Shown here: positions 2,483 to 60,550 of the stretch, in pieces
Numbering within the stretch: the first letter of the stretch is position 1
Layout of the letters: each line of letters begins with the position of its first letter
NCBI GenBank assembly: GCA_022778805.1
Contig: JALFSN010000003.1
Location: 157,804 to 221,803, forward strand
Origin: Arcanobacterium sp.
Lineage (GTDB): Bacteria > Actinomycetota > Actinomycetes > Actinomycetales > Actinomycetaceae
Direction of reading: 5' to 3'
Length of the DNA: 64,000 nt
Notes under the pieces: model-generated
What the model saw: only the letters and a program-made list of their open reading frames with translations
Told to the model about the DNA's origin: nothing
Databases searched by the model: none
Made by a program: the position numbers and the translations under genes

Positions 2483-3733
2483 ATGAGAGAAAGTGCATCC
2501 ACACGCCACTGGCTCCTCACTGTCCTGCTGGGGGTAGCCTCCTTGGTGCTAGCTAGCTGCGCTGCACCCAGCACGATTAAGAGTATCTCACAAGAAGATG
2601 CCCGCTTAAATAATAACTACGTACTGGCATTGCGCATCAGCCCACAGCTGAACGAGATTGCATGGGGTGCTACCGAGGGCTACGTGCTGTTAGCGCGTGA
2701 GGACGGCACCGCCGATATTATTGACGTCGGCTATATGGATACCGGTCAGCTGGTGTGGAACAAGAACGGCCTGTTTTTTAGCGGGCCAGCAGTGGAATAC
2801 CAACTCACTTCCTCAGGGCTACATACCCAACCGCGTGGCACCGACGAAGAATACGAGACAGTACGTTTCTCTAGTACCGATGAACATGGCTATATCGCTG
2901 TCTACAACGTGGGAATCTCCGAAGAAGGAGACGTGAGCAGAGTCGTTGTTGGTGACGGCGGGCAGCCACGCTACTGGGATGTCTCGGGAATGCTCACCTC
3001 GATCGCACAATGCGACGACAAGATAGTAGGGATCACAACGAGCAACGAAGTCAGCACTGCCGTGAAACTAGTTTTATCTGCACCCAACCATTCCGAGATA
3101 CTCACCCAGCTCTACCCGCAAGCAAATAGTGTGACAGATAGCGTTATCAGGCAAGTCAAGCGCGACAAAGACTACACATATAACCAGTTTATGGAAAATG
3201 CTCCTTGCGTAAACGGAGTCATCTACACCATGGCAGAGAAAACACCGGTTTTGGAGCAAGAAGATGGACAGCTCGTCTTGCGAGCATGGAGCATCCACTC
3301 CAATTCCTATCGAGATATCCCCCTCACCGCCGAAGATGGGACTCAACCACAGATCAGTCTTGATCACATTACATCCAGCGAGGGAAGTGTGAGCCGCGAT
3401 GGTTCACACTATCGCTGGGTAGCGTGGGAAGATGGAAAGGTTCGTTCCGTAGACCTTGCATCGGGCGTTGTACAGGAACTATTCACGATAGATCTGTCCC
3501 ACTATAGTGGCGGAGAATCGAGATTCTTTTTCACAGATACATCTGTTTTCGTACTTGACGTCAATGCCAAGCGTGATGAGCTAAAATTTTCGCGCTACAG
3601 CATCACTAATGGCAAGAAAACAGACTACTTCACCATCAAAGATCTCCCCAATGTGGATTGGCTACGAATGCCACGCAACATCATCCGAGACCTCGCCATC
3701 AACCCCACATGGCTCACGGGGCACAACGGCTAA
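2483..3733 (+). CDS. Predicted lipoprotein of unknown function
   Basis: ORF 2087-3733; N-terminus trimmed to MRESASTRHWLLTVLLGVASLVLASCAAPS with lipobox LASC; AAAGGAG at about 2455. Exact start uncertain (GTG 2477 or ATG 2483). Confidence 0.8.
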   Translation: MRESASTRHWLLTVLLGVASLVLASCAAPSTIKSISQEDARLNNNYVLALRISPQLNEIAWGATEGYVLLAREDGTADIIDVGYMDTGQLVWNKNGLFFSGPAVEYQLTSSGLHTQPRGTDEEYETVRFSSTDEHGYIAVYNVGISEEGDVSRVVVGDGGQPRYWDVSGMLTSIAQCDDKIVGITTSNEVSTAVKLVLSAPNHSEILTQLYPQANSVTDSVIRQVKRDKDYTYNQFMENAPCVNGVIYTMAEKTPVLEQEDGQLVLRAWSIHSNSYRDIPLTAEDGTQPQISLDHITSSEGSVSRDGSHYRWVAWEDGKVRSVDLASGVVQELFTIDLSHYSGGESRFFFTDTSVFVLDVNAKRDELKFSRYSITNGKKTDYFTIKDLPNVDWLRMPRNIIRDLAINPTWLTGHNG

Positions 3734-57362: not shown

Positions 57363-58304
57363 TCAGTTGAACTTACGACGAAGCGCAACGCCGGCAGCGC
57401 CCGTCAGACTCGTCAGACCAGCAAGTCCGGCAACAATCCCAATGGCAGCGCCCGTCTTAGGAAGCTGTGCACTAGCTTCTACGCTAGGCGCAGCAGCAGG
57501 AGCCTTCTCAGCCACCTTCACTTTGTCAGCCACCTTGGTCTCTGCTTTAGCACCAGGCTTAACCTCTGCACCAGGCTTAGCTTCGGTACCAGGCTTAGCT
57601 TCGGTACCAGGCTTGACCTCTTCGGTATTAGGAGTATCTTCTTTGGCTAGGCACTGGCCAAGAGCCATGCAGGGGTTCCGCTTGAAATCCCGCAAGACAT
57701 TGACGAGCACACGGCGATCTTCTTTGACAGTAGAGAGCCTCTCCTCGACAGTCTTAAGAGCTTCCTTCTCGGCATCAATGAATGCTTTGTCCTGTGCATT
57801 AGCAGCCGCTGCATCTTTCTTCAGCTGATCCAGCTCTTTCGCCAACTTGTCCAGCTTTGCAAAGTCATCCTTGTAGGTGTACTTTGCCATATCTTCGCCG
57901 AACGTTTTAACGATGACGTTCCACGAATCCTGAGCTGCAGCGAATTCTTTTTCTTTTGCTGCTACGGCTTTGCTATTGTCTTTCTTGCTGTAATCATCAA
58001 TATACTGCTTGGCTTTTGCTGCCTCTTCTTCCAAGTACGCAATCTTAGAATCAATTTCGGGTAGCAATGCTTCGAGCTTGGGCTTCAGCACTTTGTTTCT
58101 CTCGATCGTCACCTTCGGACGATCCCACTTGTTGGTATCAAGATCCCACGTAGAGAGATCGTAGTAGCTCGAGCTGCGCTGCCCAATCATTGTAACGACA
58201 TCGCCCGGCTGATAGTTCTGAGTCGCAGCGAATGCTGCCGTCCCGCCCGAGAAGCATACGGCTCCGGAGAGAATCACAGCAGCGAAAGCTTTCTTCACCT
58301 TCAT
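57363..58304 (-). CDS. LPXTG-anchored predicted helical surface protein
   Basis: Signal peptide MKVKKAFAAVILSGAVCFSGGTAAFA, helical core, KPGTEA repeats, LPKTG + TM + RRKFN; RBS AGGGGA. Confidence 0.9.
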   Translation of the reverse strand: MKVKKAFAAVILSGAVCFSGGTAAFAATQNYQPGDVVTMIGQRSSSYYDLSTWDLDTNKWDRPKVTIERNKVLKPKLEALLPEIDSKIAYLEEEAAKAKQYIDDYSKKDNSKAVAAKEKEFAAAQDSWNVIVKTFGEDMAKYTYKDDFAKLDKLAKELDQLKKDAAAANAQDKAFIDAEKEALKTVEERLSTVKEDRRVLVNVLRDFKRNPCMALGQCLAKEDTPNTEEVKPGTEAKPGTEAKPGAEVKPGAKAETKVADKVKVAEKAPAAAPSVEASAQLPKTGAAIGIVAGLAGLTSLTGAAGVALRRKFN

Positions 58305-58366
58305 AATGTTCCCCTATTGCAATTTTCCATATCTAGCGTCAAATACGCGGTGCGCTGACGCTACTG

Positions 58367-58399
58367 AGCGTAGCGCTCCCCCCCCCCGAGTCAAATTGA
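58367..58399 (-). promoter_or_regulatory. Candidate promoter with poly-G(10) spacer
   Basis: Minus strand TTGACT - C G10 AGCGC (16 nt) - TACGCT; G tract 58378-58387. Confidence 0.55.
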
Positions 58400-58573
58400 C
58401 CGAAATAATGGGATTGCGGTATGGAAAGAACAATGGGAGACATACAGGGTAGGGGTGGTTGAAGAAACTATCATCAGGTTTGGAGTGCGAAAGTTTGGAT
58501 GGCGAAAATGCGTGAGCACACCCTTGGATATACGGCGATATCTACGGCGATATGCGCACTATGCCTTAGCTTA

Positions 58574-58833: not shown

Positions 58834-58861
58834 GTTCAGCCCTCTCAGTTCAGCCCTCTAC
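58834..58861. repeat. 14-bp tandem repeat over the LPXTG-gene stop codon
   Basis: GTTCAGCCCTCTCA / GTTCAGCCCTCTAC. Confidence 0.9.
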
Positions 58862-60550
58862 AAATACTCGCCGCCTGCGATAGCACAAGGATGCTCCGGC
58901 GAGCGCCAGCGCCGGTGCCAGTGCTATAGCGGCTCCGACGCTGGCACCGGTATTGGGCAGAGCGCCCTGACGGCTCTGGCTCTCTTTCCCTGCCTGTTTT
59001 TCTGCTCCTGAGCCGCGATTGATCTCGTCAGTCGCTCCGCCTTTATCGTCACCCACATTTTTCTTGCCATCCGCATTCGATGGAGTATGCGAGGCTCCAG
59101 ATCCAGCAGGAGCGCCGTCTGGGGTAACTACTGGTGGCGTGGGGACTGAATGATCCGTCTCGTTCACGTGCTCGGCCTCATCTACATGCCCCGATGTCTC
59201 AATGCCGCCGGAATTTGGCTCAGTTCCCGTACCAGGCTCTCCCGCTCCAGGCTCCGGCTTATCCCCTGATTCATGACCACCAGTTTCAGCACCGGTGCCT
59301 GGTTCAACGGGTTTTACTTTACGCAGTTCCCAGGCACCGCCGTCGTTACGCGCCACTTCGTAATCATTGTGGGCTGGAGTGAGCGATATCGTGAGCGGCT
59401 CCTGCGAGCCAGACGCCGTCACGTAGACGTGCCCCAGCAACGGAGCCCAATTCATGTCGCTGCGGTACACCTGAAAATCAGTATCAGAGCTGACTCCGCC
59501 ATCGCCAGCAGTGATAGAGCCATTGGAACCGATCATGACCGTTCCGTCTCCTGCAATCCCCGCAACGTGAACGGCGTTGTCTGCGATTTTCAGAGTGGTT
59601 CCCGCTGCTACAGTGACGATTCCGCGAATATCGACGTCTCCCATATTCCCTAGCGTGACGTACGCTCCATCAGCAAGAGTCACATCGTGAATGCCAGAGA
59701 GCTGCACGTCTGTGAGACTCGCCTTATTGAACGTGACGGAGCGCTTTCCTATCGCAGCCCCCGCCGGAGCTGCACCCACCTTATTGACGAAGTTAGATTG
59801 GCTGACGATAGTGACTGCTCCAGTTTGTTCCGTGTCGTCTTCTGAGCCGAGATAGATCCCCTCATCCACTTTGATATTCGTGCCAACGAGATTGATATCA
59901 ACCGGAATTGTGCTGTTTTCCTCCGGACTGCCCACATAGATTTTGTGCAGCCGAGTCTCTGCATGCGGATTGATGACGTCGAGCACTGCTTTCTCTCCGA
60001 TGACGCCAGTATCATCTTTCACACCGGTGTAGATAATCGGGCGCACATCAGTTTGCAAGGGGCCAACCAAAGTATTGACGTTGTCTAAGGTCAGCTCGTG
60101 TCCAGCCTGATAGATGACTCCATTCACATTGACGCCGTTGTTAAACATCAGTTTCAGGTTCTTAAACGTCACATCGTCGCCAAGCTGCAGATCGCAGCCA
60201 CGGAATGTGATGAATGAGTTCTCAGCTCCAGCATGTGCCTCGTCGCCAGCGTCTGCCACAGGCGTGCCATCAATCGTGACTGCGGCATTAATCATCAGTA
60301 CATCACTATCACTACACGGCACAGTGACGTTGCCTTTCAGACGAATGACATCACCATCGCTGGCGTTCGCAAGAGCGCGCTGGAAGCTGGTGTAGGGATC
60401 GCTGAATGTGCCCGTTCCCCCATCGCCAGGATCATTAGAAAGCCACACTTCTCGCGTTGCTGCCGAGGCAATCGGGGAAGAGAATAGCGGAAAGGAGAGC
60501 GCCACCGCCATCGCGAGCGCAATCTTTTTTACGATTTTTCGGCCGGCCAT
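58850..60550 (-). CDS. LPXTG-anchored surface protein with right-handed beta-helix-like region
   Basis: Signal peptide, repeated VTIDG/FKNLKL-type strands, LPNTG + TM + YRRRR. Confidence 0.88.
   Translation of the reverse strand: MAGRKIVKKIALAMAVALSFPLFSSPIASAATREVWLSNDPGDGGTGTFSDPYTSFQRALANASDGDVIRLKGNVTVPCSDSDVLMINAAVTIDGTPVADAGDEAHAGAENSFITFRGCDLQLGDDVTFKNLKLMFNNGVNVNGVIYQAGHELTLDNVNTLVGPLQTDVRPIIYTGVKDDTGVIGEKAVLDVINPHAETRLHKIYVGSPEENSTIPVDINLVGTNIKVDEGIYLGSEDDTEQTGAVTIVSQSNFVNKVGAAPAGAAIGKRSVTFNKASLTDVQLSGIHDVTLADGAYVTLGNMGDVDIRGIVTVAAGTTLKIADNAVHVAGIAGDGTVMIGSNGSITAGDGGVSSDTDFQVYRSDMNWAPLLGHVYVTASGSQEPLTISLTPAHNDYEVARNDGGAWELRKVKPVEPGTGAETGGHESGDKPEPGAGEPGTGTEPNSGGIETSGHVDEAEHVNETDHSVPTPPVVTPDGAPAGSGASHTPSNADGKKNVGDDKGGATDEINRGSGAEKQAGKESQSRQGALPNTGASVGAAIALAPALALAGASLCYRRRRVFVEG

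What the first reader, a model, noticed from the sequence alone, without database searches (positions are those of the whole stretch)
58352..58404. Poly-G(10) tract between -35 and -10 elements of an LPXTG surface-protein gene: candidate phase-variable promoter
On the minus strand the sequence reads GTCAATTTGACTC-GGGGGGGGGG-AGCGCTACGCT. TTGACT (5/6 to consensus) is followed by exactly 16 nt, then TACGCT (weak -10, TAnnnT); the ATG of the LPXTG protein (58304) lies about 62 nt downstream. A G10 tract inside a promoter spacer, where +/-1 slippage gives 15/16/17 nt, is the architecture of known phase-variable surface genes (Neisseria porA/opc, Haemophilus hif, Bordetella fim). It is the longest homopolymer I saw in the window. 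It is flanked by a palindrome (GTCAAATTGAC, 58390-58400) over the -35 and a stem (GCGCTgACGCT-ACTG-AGCGTAGCGC, 58352-58376) over the -10. Surface-protein promoter switching by homopolymer is not something I know of in this lineage.
Basis: partly seen in the sequence, partly recalled or inferred. Interest (0 to 1): 0.78.

Follow-up and report, generated by a model that had tools for sequence, protein, structure and literature searches.

The report
Poly-G switch promoter of surface-protein gene
A run of ten Gs sits in the length-critical gap of the promoter of a bacterial cell-wall protein gene, and because relatives keep the same arrangement with different run lengths it is very probably an on/off dial set by copying slips, a known kind of switch that I did not find described for this bacterial family.

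Summary
The G10 tract (minus strand, 58387-58378) is the only G/C run of 7 or more in the window. It fills most of a 16-nt gap between TTGACT and TACGCT, 62 nt before the ATG of an LPXTG protein.

1. The genome has a bimodal G-run distribution: 108 runs of 6, 4 of 7, 9 of 8, 12 of 9, 4 of 10.
2. The only two clear full-length homologues found (57% and 46% identical) lie among different neighbours, yet both keep a G tract (G9, G10) between TTGAC and TAGCGT.
3. TTGAC / G8+ / TAnnnT occurs at 21 sites in 19 of 215 genomes of the family (control 2), against 3 of 395 genomes elsewhere in the class. Two orthologous pairs differ in tract length (8 vs 10; 11 vs 13) on nearly identical flanks.
4. Other tracts in the genome interrupt hsdM and secreted-protein frames.

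The flanking hairpin and palindrome are not conserved. The kind is known: C. acnes PPA1880 has a G-tract promoter spacer. I found no report for Actinomycetaceae. No within-strain length variation, transcription start or expression effect could be tested.

The parts
58378..58387 (-). G10 tract inside the -35/-10 spacer (putative slippage site)
   Evidence: conserved as G9 and G10 in two homologous promoters
58389..58394 (-). -35-like hexamer TTGACT (5/6)
   Evidence: TTGAC kept in both homologues and at 21 tract sites of the family
58367..58372 (-). -10-like hexamer TACGCT (TAnnnT), 16 nt from the -35
   Evidence: homologues have TAGCGT at 16 and 18 nt
58390..58400 (-). GTCAATTTGAC inverted repeat over the -35; not conserved
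58352..58377 (-). AGCGCTACGCT-CAGT-AGCGTCAGCGC inverted repeat over the -10 and the likely start; hairpin significant here (z -4.9) but absent from homologues
58308..58314 (-). Ribosome-binding site within TAGGGGAACATTATG (AGGGGAA kept in all three species); coordinates approximate to a few bases
57363..58304 (-). 313-aa LPXTG (LPKTG) surface protein: signal peptide, long helical bundle (residues about 62-209), disordered PGTEAKPG repeat stalk, sortase signal
   Evidence: Gram_pos_anchor 9.7e-6; AlphaFold model pLDDT above 90 over most of residues 80-200; no significant fold match
58850..60550 (-). Upstream neighbour, 566-aa secreted protein ending LPNTG; separated by an intergenic gap of over 500 nt from the LPXTG gene; context only

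Best explanation
The tract is a contingency locus. DNA polymerase slips on the G10 run during replication and adds or removes Gs. This genome has no MutS and has the NucS repair system, which is reported not to correct indels. Each slip changes the distance between the TTGACT and TACGCT elements (15, 16, 17 nt and so on) and so changes transcription of the LPXTG surface protein, giving a heritable, reversible mixture of expression states in the population. Shown here: the sequence architecture, its conservation with this gene and across the family, the bimodal run lengths, length differences between orthologous promoters elsewhere in the family, and absence of MutS. Inferred: that these hexamers are the real promoter, that the tract varies within a strain, and that spacer length sets expression.
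For: Own-genome G runs: 108 of length 6, 4 of 7, then 9/12/4 of 8/9/10 and none longer, a clear second mode. Both clear full-length homologues in the family, in different gene neighbourhoods, keep TTGAC - G9/G10 - TAGCGT and the AGGGGAA ribosome site at a similar distance from ATG while the rest of the promoter has diverged. Across 94 tracts of five genomes, a -35 of at least 5/6 plus TAnnnT at 15-21 nt spans the tract 6 times against 0.42 at random positions, 0 of 300 draws reaching 6. Family: 21 sites in 19 of 215 genomes, control 2; rest of the class 3 of 395, Fisher 1.8e-6. In 10 of 21 sites the -10 abuts the tract. G113/G116 promoters: G8 vs G10, one substitution in about 220 nt; G184/G192: G13 vs G11. 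Same genome: G9 splits hsdM exactly between N6_Mtase profile positions 26 and 27; C9 tracts interrupt two secreted-protein frames; a G8 lies between TTGTGA and TACGTT before a 2007-aa BNR-repeat (sialidase-like) LSQTG protein. MutS absent, NucS present; NucS cannot correct indels (PMC8228993).
Against: No second strain of this species, no reads, no transcription start, no expression data. At this locus the homologues' tracts are 10, 9 and 10 in diverged species, which does not itself show variation. The -10 is weak (8/12 overall, below the scan's cut-off). With 4/6 allowed in the -35, shuffling each tract's own flanks gives 9.1 hits against 14 observed (19 of 300 shuffles reach 14), so the weaker promoter assignments are not individually significant. 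Length differences between G113/G116 and G184/G192 compare assemblies and could include homopolymer errors. In C. acnes, tract lengths follow clades, suggesting slow change rather than active switching (PMC4746626).
Confidence: 0.8

Rival explanations
1. Fixed structural spacer: the G tract is kept because it gives the spacer a stiffness or twist, or a protein contact, that the promoter needs, and its length rarely changes within a strain.
For: In 10 of 21 family sites the -10 directly abuts the tract and 13 start with TAG, a stereotyped geometry. Spacers centre on 16-17 nt.
Against: Spacers range from 14 to 22 nt, too broad for a fixed element; orthologous pairs differ by two Gs on near-identical flanks; some family sites use a C tract on the coding strand instead, including one in this genome; in the same genome tracts also sit inside reading frames.
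Confidence: 0.1
2. The tract lies in the 5' leader, downstream of another promoter, and acts (if at all) on mRNA structure or translation.
For: A very weak upstream pair, TTGTTC (58433-58428) N17 CATTAT (58410-58405), can be read in the sequence; the tract is followed by a strong hairpin in this species.
Against: That upstream pair has only 3/6 in its -35 and was not listed by the scan. The conserved block is TTGAC + tract + TAGCGT, not the region upstream. The hairpin is absent in both homologues.
Confidence: 0.07
3. Chance or artefact: an ordinary homopolymer, or an assembly error, without function.
For: Homopolymers are error-prone; some contigs of relatives end at such tracts (4 of 22 in G004, 2 of 31 in G002).
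Against: Run-length distribution is bimodal, the tract is conserved in front of both homologues, and the family-wide excess over the control is tenfold.
Confidence: 0.03

Closest known systems
Cutibacterium (Propionibacterium) acnes PPA1880 guanine-tract promoter (PMC3224659)
   Same: G tract in the putative -35/-10 spacer of a secreted, putative adhesin gene in the same bacterial class; 11/13/15 Gs give spacers of 18/20/23 nt and match strain-specific secretion.
   Different: Different protein (PT-repeat protein, no homologue reported), different family; strain variation and secretion were observed there, not testable here.
C. acnes HPT_37 upstream of PPA1943 (PMC4746626)
   Same: C tract between -35 and -10 with a 2-fold expression difference between two strains.
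   Different: Metabolic gene; short tract (5/7); variation follows clades.
Haemophilus influenzae hif and Neisseria porA/opc promoter-spacer repeats (hif as described in PMC9187656; porA/opc from general knowledge)
   Same: Spacer-length switching of surface structures.
   Different: Gram-negatives; hif uses a dinucleotide repeat (general knowledge); MutS-type repair background.
Bifidobacterium breve sortase-pilus G tracts (PMC9187656)
   Same: Actinobacterial G-tract slippage controlling LPXTG proteins, with measured length mixtures.
   Different: Tract is inside the reading frame, not in a promoter; the tracts at L044, L048 and L055 of this genome resemble that type instead.
Gardnerella homopolymer tracts (PMC11287997)
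   Same: About 70% of G/C tracts of 8 or more lie upstream of genes, many for surface proteins; length variation shown for one.
   Different: Promoter-spacer placement was not resolved in the passages read.

Membership tests
Promoter-spacer homopolymer contingency locus | Homopolymer tract long enough to slip, beyond chance | tested here: met
   G10; bimodal genome-wide distribution
Promoter-spacer homopolymer contingency locus | Tract lies between -35 and -10 elements | tested here: met
   By sequence: TTGACT-16-TACGCT; conserved in homologues; permutation test. The transcription start itself was not mapped
Promoter-spacer homopolymer contingency locus | Controls a surface or host-facing gene | tested here: met
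   LPXTG protein, Gram_pos_anchor
Promoter-spacer homopolymer contingency locus | Tract length differs between otherwise near-identical alleles of this locus | tested here: inconclusive
   Only diverged homologues held (10/9/10); near-identical pairs differ at two other loci of the family
Promoter-spacer homopolymer contingency locus | Mixed lengths in a clonal population, reversible | not testable with these tools
   No reads available
Promoter-spacer homopolymer contingency locus | Expression changes with tract length | not testable with these tools
   Needs reporter fusions or RNA data
LPXTG (sortase-anchored) surface protein | Signal peptide, LPXTG, hydrophobic stretch, positive tail | tested here: met
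   LPKTG near the C end, tail RRKFN, PF00746 E 9.7e-6

The most novel reading that the evidence does not exclude
Actinomycetaceae carry a stereotyped class of switch promoters, TTGAC - G8-13 (or C) - TAGnnT, recruited repeatedly in front of unrelated LPXTG proteins and of a conserved uncharacterised gene family of about 200 aa. In this genome they form, together with frame-shifting tracts in hsdM and secreted proteins, a phasome of up to a couple of dozen loci that may link surface composition with DNA methylation.
Probability: 0.55. Interest if true: 0.65.

Novelty: new member of a known kind. Interest (0 to 1): 0.52.

Why it matters
If true, members of Actinomycetaceae diversify their surface by the same spacer-slippage device as classic mucosal bacteria, with a repair background (NucS, no MutS) that leaves homopolymer slips uncorrected. 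It gives a concrete list of loci whose expression should be mixed in single cultures, which affects strain comparison, antigen choice and interpretation of single-isolate genomes, and a simple sequence rule (TTGAC - G tract - TAnnnT) for finding such genes elsewhere in the class.

Tried and rejected
Hairpin or palindrome as part of the switch: real here (z -4.9) but absent in both homologues, so not needed. Homologue search with the single protein in named genomes found nothing; the alignment found two metagenome-assembled Actinomycetaceae, SUG1761 and SUG2173, the same contigs as G034 and G002 by length and range. Weaker -35 matches (4/6) are not clearly above flank shuffles, so only 5/6 and better are used as evidence. 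Protein function by fold: AlphaFold gives a helical bundle with a disordered stalk (mean pLDDT 62) and no match below E 0.001; the solved-structure sequence search gave nothing useful. Literature: no paper on homopolymer switching in Actinomycetaceae in three searches of the held library; the one Winkia mention concerns an invertase.

Full report
Observation. On the minus strand the window reads ...CGGTCAATTTGACTCGGGGGGGGGGAGCGCTACGCTCAGTAGCGTCAGCGC.... TTGACT lies at 58394-58389, the G10 tract at 58387-58378, TACGCT at 58372-58367 and the ATG of a 313-aa LPXTG protein at 58304. G10 is the only G/C run of 7 or more in 64 kb; there are 54 runs of 5 and two of 6. By simple consensus the promoter is good at -35 and poor at -10 (8 of 12), below the cut-off of the scan.

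Is the tract more than chance? In the 2.0-Mb host genome exact G runs number 108 (length 6), 4 (length 7), then 9, 12 and 4 for lengths 8, 9 and 10 and none longer. If the fall from 6 to 7 continued, about 0.15 runs of 8 or more would be expected; 25 are seen. Such a second mode is what contingency tracts produce. The genome has no MutS and has NucS, a repair enzyme reported not to correct indels (PMC8228993).

Is the tract tied to this gene? In 215 genomes of the family only two other genomes hold a clear full-length homologue (G034, 57%; G002, 46%; two more genomes match only the C-terminal anchor region weakly). Their neighbours differ from the window's and from each other. Both have a G tract at the same place: TTGACG-C-G9-TAGAGC-TAGCGT and TTGACA-AATCGTGC-G10-TAGCGT, 70-80 nt before the start codon, with spacers of 16 and 18 nt. 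The alignment shows the TTGAC region, the tract and the AGGGGAA ribosome site as the conserved blocks in otherwise diverged DNA (the aligner offsets TTGAC of G002 by a few columns because its tract starts further from it). The palindrome over the -35 and the hairpin over the -10 are not conserved; the hairpin is significant only in the window.

Is the architecture general? For 94 tracts in five genomes, a -35 with at least 5 of 6 matches and a TAnnnT at 15-21 nt spans the tract six times against 0.42 for the same tracts placed at random positions, with no draw of 300 reaching six. With a 4/6 -35 the excess over random positions holds (14 against 5.1), but the excess over shuffled flanks is not clear (mean 9.1, 19 of 300 reach 14), so weak cases are not counted. 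Over the family the pattern TTGAC-N0-10-G8+-N0-10-TAnnnT occurs at 21 sites in 19 of 215 genomes and 10 genera; the reversed control pattern occurs twice. Its C-tract version occurs 11 times against 3 (three of the 11 are copies of one repeat). In 395 other genomes of the class the G version occurs three times; 18 of 214 against 3 of 395 gives p = 1.8e-6. In 10 of 21 sites the -10 directly abuts the tract, and spacers run from 14 to 22 nt with a median of 16. Downstream genes include LPXTG-like proteins in G000, G002, G034, G004, G157, G230 and G232, and orthologues of one uncharacterised protein of about 200 aa in G113, G116, G202 and G236, with a C-tract version in G112.

Do tracts change length? 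Within this species this cannot be tested here. Elsewhere in the family, G113 and G116 share about 220 nt with one substitution and a tract of 8 against 10, that is, spacers of 14 and 16 nt. G184 and G192 have 13 against 11. The G230/G232 pair has the same length, 9. These are assemblies, so homopolymer errors are possible. In two relatives some contigs end within 25 bp of such tracts far more often than expected, which may reflect mixed lengths or poor sequencing of poly-G.

Other switches in the same genome. A G9 splits hsdM of a type I restriction-modification system: the upstream frame ends the N6_Mtase profile at position 26 and the downstream frame resumes at 27. C9 tracts put two secreted proteins out of frame just after the start or the signal peptide (L048, L055). 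A RibLong-domain surface protein has G9 about eight codons into its frame and another G9 172 nt upstream (L047). A G8 lies between TTGTGA and TACGTT, 17 nt before the GTG of a 2007-aa LSQTG protein with BNR repeats (L054), and a C9 lies between TTGACA and TAGATT before a 251-aa secreted protein (L040).

Mechanism. The best reading is replication slippage that changes spacer length and so promoter strength, with G10 (16 nt) as assembled one step from the usual optimum of 17 (general knowledge of sigma-70-type promoters). What is shown is architecture, conservation, recurrence and between-species length change; what is inferred is within-strain switching and its effect on expression. The LPXTG protein is predicted to be a helical bundle on a disordered stalk, so an adhesin or coat function is plausible but not shown.

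Known context. The kind is known. C. acnes PPA1880 has a G tract in the putative promoter spacer, with 11/13/15 Gs giving 18/20/23-nt spacers in strains that differ in secretion (PMC3224659); C. acnes HPT_37 is a C tract between -35 and -10 (PMC4746626); B. breve pili switch by an intragenic G tract (PMC9187656); Gardnerella has many upstream tracts (PMC11287997). In the held library I found no description for Actinomycetaceae. That the host family is Actinomycetaceae rests on the titles of the two contigs that carry the homologues in the same family or genus. I therefore file it as a new member of a known kind, with a possible family-wide promoter class as the more novel reading.

Noticed in passing
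L044:2994-3002 (G000:C3:167993-168001): G9 tract splits hsdM of a type I restriction-modification system exactly inside the N6_Mtase domain; candidate phasevarion switch.
   Followed up: partly
L047:3012-3020 and 3216-3224 (G000:C3:352811-352819, 353015-353023): RibLong-domain surface protein with a G9 near its start codon and a second G9 172 nt upstream.
   Followed up: partly
L048:3012-3020 and L055:3035-3043: C9 tracts just after a signal peptide or start codon; both genes out of frame as assembled.
   Followed up: partly
L054:10064-10071: G8 between TTGTGA and TACGTT (17 nt), the -10 ending six nt before the GTG of a 2007-aa BNR-repeat LSQTG protein: possible leaderless switch promoter of a sialidase-like surface protein.
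   Followed up: partly
L164, L165, L173, L178, L183: An uncharacterised family of about 200 aa (FQLAPGE...GELMCSSTR, no Pfam match above its cut-off) has a G or C tract between TTGAC and TAnnnT in five species.
   Followed up: partly
L169, L170: Orthologous promoters with G13 and G11 before a 100-aa protein followed by a protein of about 376 aa; perhaps a secretion-linked pair.
   Followed up: no
G000:C5:91079-91087: G9 tract about 50 nt from the 3' side of the nucS domain match (91138-91494, minus strand).
   Followed up: no
G008:C4:88008-88047, G009:C1:54595-54635 and similar: Convergent G8 runs about 30 bp apart in two same-genus genomes; perhaps G-stemmed terminators.
   Followed up: no
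G004 and G002 contig ends: Contigs end within 25 bp of G tracts (4 of 22 and 2 of 31 tracts), far above expectation.
   Followed up: partly
window 58850-60550: Neighbouring 566-aa secreted protein with an LPNTG anchor but no G/C tract of its own in the window.
   Followed up: no
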